From a virus: a DNA stretch of 39,311 bases. The translations under genes were made by a program, and so were the position numbers. The notes under the pieces are model-generated. The model did no database searches. It was not told the origin of the DNA and was given only the letters and a program-made list of their open reading frames with translations. Where the stretch lies: the IMG/VR virus record IMGVR_UViG_3300030389_002547, positions 1 through 39,311 of that record. One strand, written 5' to 3'. Within the stretch, counting starts at the first letter, position 1, and every line of letters starts with the position of its first letter. Positions 9,682 through 28,198 of the stretch are shown here, piece by piece.

Positions 9682-10014
9682 ATGGCATTTGTTCGTAAAA
9701 AGACCAAGGTTTATCCTTGGCCTGTGGAAGTAAAACGTCCTTCTGAAAAAAAACCAGGCGAATTTGAAAAATATGAATTTAAGGGAAAATTTGTAAGACT
9801 TTCTAGAACAGAACTTGATAAGTTTGAGGACGAGGATGAATTTTCTGCTTTAGAGAAGATATTAGTAGGTTGGGAGGATGTTAATGAAGAAGATGGCACA
9901 CCTATAACTTTTAGTAAAACTGCATTAAAAGAATTTTCTGAGGATGTTGATTTTGTTAAGGGAGTATTAGAAGCATTCAGAGGTTTTTATGGAAATGCTC
10001 AATCGGGAAACTAA
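9682..10014 (+). CDS. Tail assembly chaperone, gpG-like
   Basis: The 110-residue acidic protein (KFEDEDEFSALEKILVGWED; TALKEFSEDVDFVKGVLEAF) has the size and position of lambda gpG, between the tube and tape measure genes. gpG-type proteins coat the tape measure and prevent its aggregation during tail assembly. The gene ends at TAA 10012-10014, directly after the heptamer G GGA AAC at 10005-10011, so most ribosomes should make this short form and a minority the fused form listed separately. The start is the first ATG after the tail tube gene. Confidence 0.85.
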   Translation: MAFVRKKTKVYPWPVEVKRPSEKKPGEFEKYEFKGKFVRLSRTELDKFEDEDEFSALEKILVGWEDVNEEDGTPITFSKTALKEFSEDVDFVKGVLEAFRGFYGNAQSGN

Positions 10015-22894: not shown

Positions 22895-24883
22895 ATGGCA
22901 ATTCAGATAAAACTCAAAAATGCAAGTGGTAGCGATCCAAGTGCTAGCGATTTAGTTGTTGGTGAAGTTGCGATAAGAACTGATAATGGTAAATTATTTA
23001 CAAAAAAAGATGATGGAAGCGTTGCTGAAATAAGCGGTAGCGGTGGTGGTGGTGGTGGTTCTAATAATATTGATATTAATACTCTATCCTCTTCATCTGG
23101 CACAGGTGGTGGTAGTGCAACATTTAACGGAACAGCTTATAGATTTACATTAAGCAGTCCACCAACTACAGCACAAGAAGCTTTAGTTTCAATTAGTGGT
23201 GTTGTTCAAAAACCTAATTCTGGTACTAGTCAGCCATCTGAAGGTTATGCTATTGATGGTAATGATATTATTTTTTCTGCTGCTCCTCCTTCTGGAGCAA
23301 GTTTTTTCATTGTTACTTATGGTCGTTTAGGTGTTGGTACACCATCAAACAATACTGTTACGTCTGACAAAATAGTAGACGGAACCATTGTTAATGCTGA
23401 TATAAATGCAAGTGCAGCAATAGCAGCTTCAAAGATTGCTGGTTTAGCGACTTCAGCTACAACAGATACTACAAACGCATCAAACATTTCTTCTGGAACA
23501 CTTGCAGCAGCTAGAGTTGCGACTCTTAATCAAGATACTACTGGCAATGCTGCTACAGCTACAACTTTAGAAACTGCTAGAACTATTGCTGGTACAAGTT
23601 TCAATGGTTCTGCAAATATTGATATTGACTACAATAATTTAACTAATAAACCAACATTGACCACAGGTCCGACAGGCCCCACTGGCCCCACTGGCCCTAC
23701 GGGTCCAACTGGCCCAACTGGCCCAGCTGGTAATGATGGAGCAGATGGTGCAACAGGACCTACTGGGCCAGAAGGCCCTACAGGTGCAACAGGACCTACT
23801 GGACCTCAAGGACCCGCAGGTAATGATGGTGCGGATGGCGCAGATGGCGCAGATGGTCAAGATGGTGCGACAGGTCCAACTGGCCCTACAGGTCCTCAAG
23901 GTAGTACAGGATCTGCTGGATCTGCTGCGACTATAGCTGTAGGAAGTACTACTACAGGCCCTGCTGGATCTAATGCTTCTGTATCAAATTCTGGATCATC
24001 AAGTTCTGCAACTTTTAATTTCACAATACCTAGAGGAGCAACAGGTCCGACTGGACCTACAGGCCCCACAGGGCCTACAGGAAGTACAGGATCGTCTGGA
24101 TCTGCTGCAACCGTTGGAGTTCACAGTACACTCACAGGATCGGCTGGTACAAATGCCTCTGTTGTTAATTTAGGAACATCTACTAATGCTAGTTTTCGTT
24201 TCACAATACCTAGAGGACCTACTGGTTTTACTGGCGGTACAGGACCTACAGGTCCTCCAGGACCTACAGGAGCTACAGGGTCTCCAGGAGGACCTGGACC
24301 TGCTGGACCTGCTGGTTCTACATCTTACAATGCTGGTCAATTAAGTGGTCTAGGTATTTCTCTTTCTGGTAATCGTTACGGAGTAATATTGCATACCTCT
24401 AATGCTGGTGTATGTGAACTAGGTCGTTATTTAGATTTTCATACTTCTGATGGTAGCACTGGTGATTTTGAAGGTGGAAGAATAAGCGGTGGTTCTAGTT
24501 TTATTGATTTTTCAAAAGGTGTTCGTGCGCCAAGTTATACGACAAGTTCTGATCGTGATATTAAAAATACAATTGTAGATTCTGATTTAGGTCTTGATTT
24601 TATTAATAAGCTAACTCCTAAATCGTTTAAATATAACCAAGACATAGATGAATTAGGATTTGATTCAAAGACTCATTATGGTCTTATTGCACAAGACGTT
24701 GAGGATGTAATTACTGGATTAGGAAGAACACTTGATGATATTTCTATTGCTGTTAAAACTGAAGATAAATTCCAAAATGGTAATATTATGCCAATGTCTG
24801 TTGATTATATTCAATTAGTTAGTGTTTTAATAAAAGCTGTACAAGAGTTGTCCGCTAAGATAGACGTATTGGAGGCTAAGTAA
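22895..24883 (+). CDS. Collagen-like tail fibre with C-terminal S74 chaperone (first copy)
   Basis: An AGGAGG at 22881-22886 precedes the ATG. The 662 residues comprise a phage-binding N-terminus ([20 protein letters not shown]), a Gly/Ser linker, a beta region, and from about residue 257 to 472 Gly-X-Y triplets, mostly GPT, GPA and GAD. Two non-collagen beta modules interrupt them: one reads [20 protein letters not shown], the other [20 protein letters not shown], and both close with FTIPRG. The C-terminal 110 residues are an S74 intramolecular chaperone, with S552-D-R-D-I-K557 as Ser/Lys pair and a final coiled coil ([18 protein letters not shown]). The chaperone should trimerise the fibre and then cut itself off. 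Confidence 0.93.
23663..24310 (+). repeat. Gly-X-Y (GPT) collagen-like repeat tract, first fibre
   Basis: The tract consists of 9-base units coding Gly-Pro-Thr and variants (GGTCCGACA, GGCCCCACT, GGACCTACA). It is split by two modules at about 23920-24035 and 24100-24215. The DNA is visibly richer in G+C than the rest of the window. Codon variation among repeats (GGT, GGC, GGA for Gly; CCT, CCA, CCC, CCG for Pro) limits perfect repeats. Confidence 0.92.
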
Positions 24884-26896
24884 ATGGGTCTAACAAAAGT
24901 ATCATCTGACGGTATAGAAGATGGAAGTATTGTTAATGCTGATTTGCATAATGCTGCTGCAATAGATAAAAGTAAATTAAATATTTCTAATGCAACAACT
25001 TCTGCTGCTGGTTATCAGTCCGCAGCAGATAAAACAAAATTAGACGGCATAGAGAGTAATGCAACTGCCGATCAAACAGCTAGTGAGATAAGAACTCTTG
25101 TAGAAGCAGCTACAGATTCCAATGTATTTACTGATGCTGATCATACAAAACTAAATGGTATTGAAACTGGAGCCACTGCGGATCAAACAAACGCAGAAAT
25201 AAAAACAGCTTATGAAGCAAACTCAGACACAAATGCTTTTACTGATGCTGAAAAAACCAAGCTCTCAGGTGTTGAGAGTAATGCAACTGCTGATCAATCA
25301 GCTAGTGAGATAAAAACTCTTTTACAGTCAGATAAATTAACTGTTAATGAGATAGCTGATGATGCTGTTACTAGGGATAAGGTAAATTTTGTTTCTACAT
25401 CTTCTGAACCAGCTATTGAAGCAAAAGGTGATGGAAGTATGCAAGATGGCTATTTACAACTTAATTGCTCACAAAACAGTCACGGTGTAAAAATAAAATC
25501 TCCTCCTCATAGTGCCAATGCAAGTTATACATTAACCCTTCCAGATGATACAGGTTCGGCCAATCAAGTTTTAAAAACTGATGGATCGGGTGGACTCGAT
25601 TGGGTTGATAATACGGCAGGTCCTACTGGGCCTACTGGGCCTACTGGACCCACAGGACCTGCGGGTAGTAACGGAACTAATGGAGCAGACGGAGCAGACG
25701 GAGCAGACGGAGCTACAGGGCCAACTGGACCTGTGGGGCCAACTGGACCGACAGGACCTGCTGGTAGTAATGGCTCTGATGGAAATGATGGAGCAACAGG
25801 ACCAACAGGACCAACAGGACCTGCGGGAACTTCTGCAACTATCGCAATTGGTACGGTGTCTACTGGGCCTGCTGGTAGTAATGCAACCGTCACAAACTCT
25901 GGCTCCTCTACTGCTGCTACATTTGATTTTTCAATCCCAAAAGGAGACACAGGCCCAACGGGTCCAACAGGTCCCCAAGGAGCTACAGGACCGACAGGCC
26001 CTGCGGGTGGTTCTGGAGATTCTGGAGGAGATGGCCCACCTGGACCGACAGGCCCCACTGGCCCAACAGGACCCACAGGACCCACTGGGCCTTCGGGTAC
26101 AGGCCCAACAGGACCAACAGGACCAACAGGACCTACTGGTTCAGCAGCTACTATTAGCGTTCACAGTACAGTCACAGGATCTGCTGGATCTAATGCTTTA
26201 GTACAAAATTTCGGTTCATCATCTAATGCTAGCTTTAGATTTACAATTCCTAGAGGAAATACAGGCAGTACAGGACCGACAGGACCGACAGGGCCAACAG
26301 GGCCAACAGGACCGTCAGGAGGAACTGGACCTACTGGTCAAACAGGAAATACAGGGCCACAAGGACCTGCTGGGCCAACAGGTCCTACTGGACCGTCAGG
26401 CCCACCTGGGCCTACTGGTGGACCTGGGCCTACAGGACCACAAGGACCTGGAATATATTCAAGCAACGTAACGAGTATTATTGGTATTGGAACTGCATAT
26501 TTACAAATTGGTACAACTTACGGAGCTTGGGGTGTTAGCTGGTGGCCATCAGATGTAAACAAAAAAGAAAATATAGTTGATACTTCTTATGATGCAATCG
26601 CAGCAATCAAAGCTTTAAAATTTAGAGACTTTGATTGGAAAGCTGGCGAGCCAGAAACTGGAAGCGTTCAATGTGGAGTTATTTCTCAAGAGGTTGAGGC
26701 TGTTGATAGTAGTTTTGTAATTGACGTTGCAGACGTAGAATATACTGATAGCGATGGCAATACACAAACTGCAAAAGGATCTAAAGGTGTTAATCCAAAC
26801 AGGATAATTACTGTTTCCGCTAGGGCAATACAAGAATTAATTACAAAAGTAGAGATTCTTGAAGCAGAAGTAGCCGCATTAAAAGCAGGTAGTTAA
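24884..26896 (+). CDS. Collagen-like tail fibre with C-terminal S74 chaperone (second copy)
   Basis: The ATG follows the preceding stop directly. The 670 residues begin [20 protein letters not shown], followed by three spaced repeats of [18 protein letters not shown] type (residues about 50-145), a fibre motif [20 protein letters not shown], then Gly-X-Y triplets at about 245-524. Two interrupting modules ([40 protein letters not shown]) match, in the same order, the two in the gene before. The C-terminus is a second S74-type domain, more divergent, with S556-D-V-N-K-K561 in place of SDRDIK and a final helix ([16 protein letters not shown]). Its stop overlaps the stop of the facing oxygenase gene. 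Confidence 0.92.
25618..26455 (+). repeat. Gly-X-Y (GPT) collagen-like repeat tract, second fibre
   Basis: This is the longer of the two collagen-like tracts. It is interrupted by the modules at about 25828-25945 and 26140-26255. It contains runs of GPT, with GAD triplets near 25,680-25,715 and GPP or GPS triplets near the end ([17 protein letters not shown]). Its G+C is clearly above the neighbours. Confidence 0.92.
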
Positions 26897-27501
26897 ATAA
26901 CGGTTTGATCTTGACAGTAGTACCAAGTCACTGCGACTCTTTTCTTGCCTGATATTACAGGTGTTGAACAATGTGTAAAACACCAATTAGATGGAAAAAA
27001 TAATGCCCTTCCAGCTTTAGGTCTAAAGTCTTTTTTCGGAAGCATTTTAAATTTTGTAGCTCCTCCTTCAAAATCATCTTTTAAATAAAGAACAATAGAA
27101 GTACTACGGTAGTAAAAAGAACTTCTTGGGTCAGTACAGGTATCAAAATGCCAGTTATATCTTTGTTCTGATGTGTATTCTAAAACTTGTATTTCCTCCC
27201 TGTTTGAACTTGTACCATTACCACCAATTAGAGGCCAATTATTTAAAACAAGATCTTTTTTTAAAAGATTATCTCTATACAACAATAAAGCGTTATTAAG
27301 TTTTTCATGTAGTAAAGCTGTAGCTGCAACATCTTCCCGCATCCAACTGCCAGTACTTGATCTTACACTTGGTACAACTCTTGTACTTTGTTCTTGTCCA
27401 AAAACAGTATTAGGATTAAAATCTAAAGTATCAACATATTTATTGATTATTTTTAATTCAGTAGCATTAAGAACAGGTAGGTTTTGGATAAATTCTTTCA
27501 T
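26893..27501 (-). CDS. Prolyl-4-hydroxylase-type 2-oxoglutarate/Fe(II) oxygenase
   Basis: The 202-residue protein has the full P4Hc iron site: H118-x-D120 in [11 protein letters not shown] and distal H177 in [10 protein letters not shown] basic residue for 2-oxoglutarate follows (K187 in [12 protein letters not shown]). Other family features are [19 protein letters not shown] and [13 protein letters not shown]. Such enzymes hydroxylate a target, often proline, using O2 and 2-oxoglutarate. It lies on the minus strand, convergent with the second collagen-like fibre, and the two stop codons share TTAA at 26893-26896. The target is not shown by sequence. The Gly-Pro-Thr fibres are the obvious candidates, but oxygenases of this type with unknown targets are also common in marine phages. 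Confidence 0.9.
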
Positions 27502-27561: not shown

Positions 27562-27732
27562 ATGGCTCGTAAAACAGACGAAGAATTAAAACAGCATATT
27601 CAATTTTTACAAACTAAACAAGAGCAAGCGGTTCAGTTAGCTAATAATTGTCGTGATGAAATTATGTGTCTTAAACACGTTTTAGCAGATAGAGCAGAGG
27701 CAGAAAACGAAAAAAAGTCTTCTGCGAAATAA
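27562..27732 (+). CDS. Small coiled-coil protein, possible frameshift donor
   Basis: The ATG at 27562 gives 56 residues. An in-frame GTG at 27544 would add six poor residues, so ATG is preferred, although neither has a clear ribosome-binding site. The sequence is a charged amphipathic helix (DEELKQHIQFLQTKQEQAVQ; DEIMCLKHVLADRAEAENEK). Near its end, at 27711-27717, the frame reads A AAA AAG, a strong -1 slippery heptamer. The -1 frame just there is open and encodes a zinc ribbon (next entry). The function is unknown. The gene is the first on the plus strand after the divergent oxygenase. Confidence 0.7.
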   Translation: MARKTDEELKQHIQFLQTKQEQAVQLANNCRDEIMCLKHVLADRAEAENEKKSSAK

Positions 27733-27845
27733 TAGAAAAGGAGTGTAGATGCTGCGGTAAAATGTTCTCTACCACAGAACAAAGAAGAAAATATTGTTCT
27801 AACGCTTGTAAAACTAGATTTTATCGAAGAAAAAAAGCTACTTAG
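27693..27845 (+). CDS. Zinc-ribbon coding frame without its own start codon
   Basis: The frame is open from 27693 to the TAG 27843-27845. It encodes CEIIEKECRCCGKMFSTTEQ followed by RRKYCSNACKTRFYRRKKAT. The cysteine pattern C-x2-CGK-x-F and YCSNAC plus the basic tail is that of small phage and bacterial zinc ribbons. The first possible ATG (27762) comes after the first cysteine pair, so a product starting there would be half a ribbon. A ribosome slipping by -1 at 27711-27717 in the coiled-coil gene would enter this frame at GTC 27717 and make a fusion of about 94 residues. A GGAG at 27740-27743 instead precedes an out-of-frame three-codon ORF whose stop is next to ATG 27762. Which route is used is unresolved. 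Confidence 0.6.
   Translation, partial: SRGRKRKKVFCEIIEKECRCCGKMFSTTEQRRKYCSNACKTRFYRRKKAT
27711..27717 (+). promoter_or_regulatory. Candidate -1 frameshift heptamer (A AAA AAG)
   Basis: In the coiled-coil gene frame the bases read GA-A AAA AAG TCT, an exact X XXY YYZ heptamer and the same sequence as the well-known dnaX site of E. coli. The -1 frame then runs into a conserved-looking zinc ribbon with no usable start of its own. The heptamer also occurs by chance in A-rich DNA, so the support comes from the open frame behind it. Confidence 0.5.
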
Positions 27846-27880: not shown

Positions 27881-28198
27881 GTGACGTATAAAGGTGACAG
27901 AGCTACAATTAGTAGTAACACAAGCACACTTGTAAATGAAAGTGCTTTAAGTATCGCAAATTTAATCATGTTTCAAAAGATCGCTAATGTTTTAAGTATT
28001 GTCTCTTTTATCATGGTAGCCTCCATGAGTGGTGGAGCGTACTTCGGTTACAAGTATGTAACGAGTGAAAATTTTAAATCCCAGGTAATGAAGGAGATTA
28101 TGGGTAACGTATCTGGGCTGATGCCAAAGGTATTAGATAAAGGTCTACCTGATGTTACAGGACCATCTATACCTACTAAATCTCTTCCTAAACTCTAA
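27881..28198 (+). CDS. Small membrane protein (cyanophage-like)
   Basis: The frame begins with GTG 27881 (105 residues); the first ATG is at 27968 (76 residues). No clear Shine-Dalgarno sequence supports either. From the ATG it reads MFQKIANVLSIVSFIMVASM then SGGAYFGYKYV, a single strong transmembrane helix near the N-terminus. An acidic-polar segment and LMPKVLDKGLPDVTGPSIPT follow, with a Pro/Lys end. I recall similar short proteins in marine cyanophages, always uncharacterised. It is followed after 6 bases by another membrane protein gene. Confidence 0.65.
   Translation: MTYKGDRATISSNTSTLVNESALSIANLIMFQKIANVLSIVSFIMVASMSGGAYFGYKYVTSENFKSQVMKEIMGNVSGLMPKVLDKGLPDVTGPSIPTKSLPKL

What the first reader, a model, noticed from the sequence alone, without database searches (positions are those of the whole stretch)
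27562..27845. Candidate second -1 frameshift joining a coiled coil to a zinc ribbon
The coiled-coil gene has the heptamer A AAA AAG at 27711-27717 in the right phase. The -1 frame then encodes a conserved-looking zinc ribbon (C-x2-CGK...YCSNAC) that lacks ATG, GTG or TTG before its first cysteine pair. Slipping would give about 94 residues. Such a gene would be missed by ordinary annotation. The same window already has one clear -1 site, so this phage's translation may use the trick twice. A competing possibility is re-initiation at 27762 from a three-codon ORF preceded by GGAG, giving only half of the ribbon.
Basis: partly seen in the sequence, partly recalled or inferred. Interest (0 to 1): 0.62.

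Follow-up and report, generated by a model that had tools for sequence, protein, structure and literature searches.

The report
Conserved frameshift adds phage zinc finger
In a family of marine phages, probably infecting cyanobacteria, a short coiled-coil gene carries a conserved slip signal that should let some ribosomes shift back one base and add a zinc-binding domain, so one gene makes two proteins and ordinary annotation misses the second.

Summary
A AAA AAG (27711-27717) lies in phase near the 3' end of a 56-codon coiled-coil ORF (27562-27732). The -1 frame encodes a CxxC...YCSxxC ribbon, giving a 94-residue fusion. Taken alone the heptamer is weak evidence: it arises by chance in about 57% of codon-shuffled versions.

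Comparative evidence carries the case. Of 59 distinct coiled-coil genes with a -1-frame ribbon from IMG/VR contigs, all keep an in-phase A AAA AAG/A. All 17 coiled-coil genes without a ribbon lack it. The ribbon is under strong purifying selection in the -1 frame only (ratio 0.07 versus 3.5 and 1.1). None of the 59 has ATG/GTG/TTG/CTG in the -1 frame before the first cysteine. A Shine-Dalgarno-like GAGG sits 10 nt upstream in most, kept by an anomalous GAG codon (56/60 versus 6/15 in ribbon-less genes). One locus is a natural in-frame fusion. Re-initiation and RNA-polymerase slippage are disfavoured.

This is a new family in a known class (phage frameshifts that append an optional C-terminal domain), with dnaX-like signals but no detected hairpin. 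The protein's role is unknown; nucleic-acid or assembly-partner binding is inferred.

The parts
27562..27732 (+). Zero-frame ORF: 56-aa predicted coiled-coil protein (PHROG phrog_20003); ATG start, TAA stop followed by TAG
27697..27700 (+). Internal Shine-Dalgarno-like GAGG, 10 nt upstream of the heptamer; GAG at codon 46 in 56/60 frameshift-type genes versus 6/15 ribbon-less genes
27711..27717 (+). Slippery heptamer A_AAA_AAG in zero-frame phase
27717..27845 (+). -1-frame coding region after the slip (42 codons plus TAG stop)
27744..27809 (+). Zinc ribbon core: Cys codons at 27744, 27753, 27795 and 27807 (CxxC...YCSxxC), invariant across homologues; basic tail follows
27762..27764 (+). ATG proposed for re-initiation; replaced by non-start codons in 29/59 homologues

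Best explanation
The locus is one gene that makes two proteins by programmed -1 ribosomal frameshifting. Most ribosomes read the zero frame and release a 56-residue coiled-coil protein. At A_AAA_AAG, helped by an internal Shine-Dalgarno-like GAGG 10 nt upstream, a fraction of ribosomes slip back one base and continue for 42 codons, making a 94-residue coiled-coil plus four-cysteine zinc ribbon with a basic tail. Supported by comparative sequence evidence: the coding status of the -1 frame, the slip site, the covariation of heptamer and ribbon, and the absence of another start. Inferred: the slip happening in the host, its efficiency, zinc binding and function. The most likely role is a small oligomer of coiled-coil subunits in which a minority carry a zinc-ribbon tail that binds nucleic acid or an assembly partner, with the frameshift setting the ratio. 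That role is a guess of roughly 30-40%; the confidence given here is for the frameshift.
For: 59/59 distinct coiled-coil plus -1-ribbon genes carry an in-phase A AAA AAG (or AAAAAAA), against 0/17 coiled-coil genes without a ribbon. The X base is kept through codon changes E/A/V/T/S/K. The nonsynonymous/synonymous ratio of the ribbon is 0.07 in the -1 frame, 3.5 in frame 0 and 1.13 in +1; the upstream part is 0.23 in frame 0 versus 1.78 and 1.03 in the others. There is no start codon before the first Cys in any of 59. SD-like motif sits 10-11 nt upstream in 54/60; codon 46 is GAG 56:4, against 6:9 in ribbon-less genes (Fisher p = 2e-5), while most other Glu positions favour GAA. L003 is an in-frame fusion lacking part of the coiled coil. 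More divergent lineages (L169, L175, L194, L196, L202) keep slip site and ribbon. A_AAA_AAG is the E. coli dnaX shift site (PMC5009743), and an SD-like element with the heptamer 10 nt downstream is the dnaX arrangement (PMC11162774).
Against: There is no ribosome profiling, peptide or reporter evidence. The 59 sequences are related and not independent. No conserved downstream RNA structure was found (alignment z = +0.2; single-sequence z about 0), so efficiency may be modest. Six of 60 lack an SD-like motif. The host's lysine tRNA set is unknown, and it affects slipping on AAG. L003 is a single case and could be an assembly artefact.
Confidence: 0.94

Rival explanations
1. Re-initiation: ribosomes end the three-codon ORF at 27749-27760 and restart at ATG 27762, giving a 27-residue half ribbon.
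For: GGAG (27740-27743), the mini-ORF and the ATG all exist in the window. 30/59 homologues have ATG or GTG at the equivalent codon.
Against: 29/59 have a non-start codon there, and 29/59 lack the mini-ORF ATG. The product would lack the first invariant CxxC. Codons upstream of 27762 are themselves conserved in the -1 frame back to the heptamer.
Confidence: 0.03
2. RNA-polymerase slippage on the A-run makes mRNAs with an altered number of A, which give the fusion by normal decoding.
For: A-run of 7 in most genes, 8-9 in three.
Against: Seven of 59 have only six A, too short for efficient slippage by general knowledge, yet keep the heptamer phase. The conserved SD-like element would not be needed.
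Confidence: 0.03
3. The ribbon starts on its own at a rare codon such as the conserved AUA, or by coupling to the TAATAG stop.
For: ATA occurs in the -1 frame just before the ribbon in most homologues.
Against: AUA is an extremely poor start (general knowledge). L068 has no ATA there. This does not explain heptamer-ribbon covariation or the in-frame fusion L003.
Confidence: 0.02
4. Decayed or sequencing-error frameshift: the gene is really one frame, and the shift is an indel error or pseudogene.
For: Homopolymer A7 is error-prone.
Against: Same frame relation in 59 distinct sequences from many metagenomes, with strong purifying selection on both parts.
Confidence: 0.005

Closest known systems
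E. coli dnaX -1 frameshift
   Same: Same heptamer A_AAA_AAG, and an SD-like element 10 nt upstream (PMC11162774)
   Different: No downstream hairpin detected here. In dnaX the shift truncates the product (own knowledge); here it extends it with a new domain
Frameshift-appended Ig-like domains in phage capsid and tail proteins (T3, A2, A118 and others)
   Same: An optional C-terminal domain reached by -1 shift in some phages and by in-frame decoding in others (PMC5009743)
   Different: The domain is a four-Cys zinc ribbon, and the carrier is a tiny coiled-coil protein rather than a major virion protein
Lambda G/GT tail assembly chaperone
   Same: One gene, two products sharing the N-terminal part, made in a ratio by -1 slipping in a tailed phage
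   Different: Different genes and location. This window also has a plausible G/GT-type site (G_GGA_AAC, 10005-10011)
PHROG phrog_20003 coiled coil (Prochlorococcus phages MED4-117 and P-SSP3)
   Same: Same coiled-coil family; in MED4-117 it also precedes the same small membrane-protein gene
   Different: The isolates have the coiled coil only, without ribbon or in-phase heptamer

Membership tests
Programmed -1 ribosomal frameshift (tandem slippage) | X_XXY_YYZ heptamer in zero-frame phase | tested here: met
   A_AAA_AAG at 27711-27717; conserved in 59/59
Programmed -1 ribosomal frameshift (tandem slippage) | -1 frame downstream is protein-coding | tested here: met
   Ratio 0.07 in the -1 frame against 3.5 and 1.13 in the other frames
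Programmed -1 ribosomal frameshift (tandem slippage) | No independent start for the -1 frame | tested here: met
   0/59 with ATG/GTG/TTG/CTG before the first Cys
Programmed -1 ribosomal frameshift (tandem slippage) | Stimulator: upstream SD-like element | tested here: met
   SD-like motif 10-11 nt upstream in 54/60, with anomalous GAG codon conservation; effect on slipping not tested
Programmed -1 ribosomal frameshift (tandem slippage) | Stimulator: downstream hairpin or pseudoknot | tested here: not met
   Alignment fold z about +0.2; single fold z about 0. Pseudoknots not tested; this stimulator is not obligatory in bacteria
Programmed -1 ribosomal frameshift (tandem slippage) | Fusion protein produced in vivo | not testable with these tools
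   Needs peptides, profiling or a reporter
phrog_20003 | Profile match of the zero-frame protein | tested here: met
   E = 2e-8 for the fusion and 9e-10 for a homologue's zero-frame product
Named Pfam zinc-ribbon or treble-clef families (DUF2116, YacG, zf-FCS) | Score above the curated cut-off | tested here: not met
   For the window's ribbon the only hit is DUF2116, 13.4 bits against a cut-off of 26.8
Four-cysteine zinc-binding domain | Invariant ligand set | tested here: met
   C12, C15, C29, C33 invariant in alignment A4; zinc binding itself not tested

The most novel reading that the evidence does not exclude
The frameshift ratio is itself a control device: the zinc-ribbon isoform is a dosage-set regulator or assembly factor of a tail-fibre-proximal module, and slip efficiency responds to the state of the host (lysine tRNA, ribosome load), with phages exchanging ribbon and non-ribbon tails by recombination inside the coiled coil.
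Probability: 0.12. Interest if true: 0.8.

Novelty: new member of a known kind. Interest (0 to 1): 0.6.

Why it matters
Well-supported phage frameshifts are few outside tail chaperones and capsid or tail Ig-like extensions. This is a small, widespread marine family in which ribbon-less relatives provide a built-in control: ribbon and heptamer are present or absent together, and the codon that makes the SD-like element is more constrained in ribbon-bearing genes. It shows that PHROG-style catalogues miss a conserved domain, and it gives a compact natural system for measuring slipping with an SD-like element and no obvious hairpin.

Tried and rejected
Downstream RNA hairpin: no signal by single-sequence or alignment folding. 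Cultured-phage homologues with the ribbon: none found by tblastn; only ribbon-less coiled coils in P-SSP2/3, P-RSP2 and MED4-117. Bacterial genome collection: only one remote ribbon, in a Lachnospiraceae contig. Ribbon function from Pfam, PDB sequence search or Foldseek: weak generic zinc-finger matches only. AlphaFold of the in-frame fusion L003: a helix, then a strand/helix zinc-finger-like unit, mean pLDDT 79.5 but pTM 0.38 and a low-confidence linker, so not informative on function. A first mixed alignment (A3) misaligned coiled coils with ribbons and was discarded. A first scripting attempt failed and was redone. No paper describing this frameshift was found in the held library.

Full report
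WHAT IS THERE. The window is a 39,311-base uncultivated virus record. At 27562 an ATG opens a 56-codon ORF that ends TAA TAG (27730-27735). Seven A and a G at 27710-27717 contain A_AAA_AAG in phase (27711-27717). A one-base back-slip opens 42 more codons ending TAG 27843-27845, with cysteine codons at 27744, 27753, 27795 and 27807.

IS THE HEPTAMER ALONE IMPRESSIVE? No. Re-drawing codons for the same protein with the family's usage gives an in-phase A6N heptamer in 57% of trials, because EKK in an AT-rich genome makes it. The case has to rest on comparison.

COMPARISON. A scan of IMG/VR with the fusion found 77 loci, most matching both halves over 281 nt, the length a -1 shift predicts. Two further scans with alignments added divergent members and ribbon-less members. 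Among 78 distinct coiled-coil genes, 59 have the ribbon in the -1 frame and all 59 have an in-phase A AAA AAG/A; 17 have no ribbon and none has the heptamer; one (L168) has the slip but is cut by the contig end before the ribbon motif is complete; one (L003) has the ribbon in frame 0. The 17 comprise the EKESQ...ESTSI tail form from IMG/VR plus the cyanophage isolates P-SSP2 and P-SSP3. MED4-117, read separately, is also ribbon-less. L003 lacks a stretch of the coiled coil, and this puts the ribbon in frame.

SELECTION. Over 45 sequences of the main class, pairwise single-difference codons give a nonsynonymous/synonymous ratio of 0.07 for the ribbon read in the -1 frame, against 3.5 and 1.13 in the other frames. 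The coiled coil gives 0.23 in frame 0 against 1.78 and 1.03. Both halves are real coding sequence in the frames proposed. Pairs are not phylogenetically independent, so the ratios are descriptive.

SIGNALS. The X base of the heptamer stays A while its codon is GAA (52), GCA (4), GTA, ACA, TCA or AAA. Two genes have A_AAA_AAA followed by C. GAGG, AGGA or GGAG lies 10 nt (50) or 11 nt (4) upstream, and is missing in six. Codon 46, which makes the GAG of GAGG, is GAG in 56 of 60, although Glu is GAA in most other positions; in ribbon-less genes it is 6 GAG to 9 GAA (p = 2e-5; related sequences, so the p-value is only indicative). This is the dnaX arrangement: an internal SD-like element with A AAA AAG 10 nt downstream (PMC11162774), at the heptamer reported as the most shift-prone of several tested in E. 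coli (PMC5009743). No conserved hairpin follows.

ALTERNATIVES. No ATG, GTG, TTG or CTG precedes the first cysteine in the -1 frame in any of 59. The re-initiation codon is ATG or GTG in 30 and a non-start codon in 29; the mini-ORF ATG is absent in 29. A-runs of six in seven genes argue against polymerase slippage. Error or decay is excluded by conservation.

SURROUNDINGS. The gene lies after two collagen-like fibre genes (22895-24883 and 24884-26896; the second has Collagen and Peptidase_S74 matches) and after a 2OG-Fe(II) oxygenase on the other strand. It precedes a small predicted membrane protein (phrog_568, named 'plasmid stability'). The same coiled-coil/membrane-protein order, with a ribbon-less coiled coil, occurs in Prochlorococcus phage MED4-117, so a picocyanobacterial host is likely but not shown. 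Tails with and without ribbon sit on similar coiled coils (L162, L139), which suggests recombination inside the coiled coil.

STAND-ALONE RIBBONS. L147-L151, L153 and L154 carry ATG-started ribbons of about 43-46 aa in contigs where no coiled-coil gene was detected by pattern in the fetched flanks (a divergent coiled coil could be missed). The ribbon can therefore be an independent gene elsewhere, and this family has attached it by frameshift.

MECHANISM AND ROLE. Two products sharing the coiled coil are expected. The ribbon has four invariant cysteines and a basic tail, and weak similarity to the zinc parts of phage HNH endonucleases (phrog_1271, E = 3e-5) and to treble-clef models below cut-off. 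Nucleic-acid or partner binding is inference. Known parallels are phage Ig-like domains reached by frameshift in some phages and in frame in others (PMC5009743).

VERDICT. A real, conserved, apparently unannotated -1 frameshift family; new member of a known kind. Confidence 0.94 in the frameshift from sequence evidence, low in function, and no protein-level proof.

Noticed in passing
window 10005-10011: G_GGA_AAC heptamer at the end of ORF 9682-10014, with an open -1 frame running towards the tape-measure-like gene: plausible lambda G/GT-type tail chaperone frameshift.
   Followed up: partly
window 22895-26896 and 26893-27501: Two collagen-like GPT-repeat fibre genes (Pfam Collagen and a Peptidase_S74 chaperone in the second) next to a 2OG-Fe(II) oxygenase on the opposite strand; possibly a phage prolyl hydroxylase acting on its own fibres.
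   Followed up: partly
L162, L167, L171-L173, L176, L178-L186, L188, L191 (coiled-coil genes): Ribbon-less coiled coils end in a different conserved tail (EKESQFETCTPKLEKALESTSI); in the loci where the flank was read, a signal-peptide-like ORF (MLKKVLTLSAASVALSVPAYAG...) follows.
   Followed up: partly
L138:958-1280: A coiled coil with a different N-terminal part, not matched by phrog_20003, has the same slip site and ribbon: the slip-plus-ribbon cassette appears to move between carriers.
   Followed up: partly
L147-L151, L153, L154: Stand-alone ATG-started ribbon genes; in L147 the ribbon overlaps the end of the upstream gene.
   Followed up: partly
window 27968-28198: Small predicted membrane protein matching phrog_568 'plasmid stability', about 73% DNA identity to Prochlorococcus phage MED4-117; conserved just downstream of the coiled-coil gene.
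   Followed up: partly
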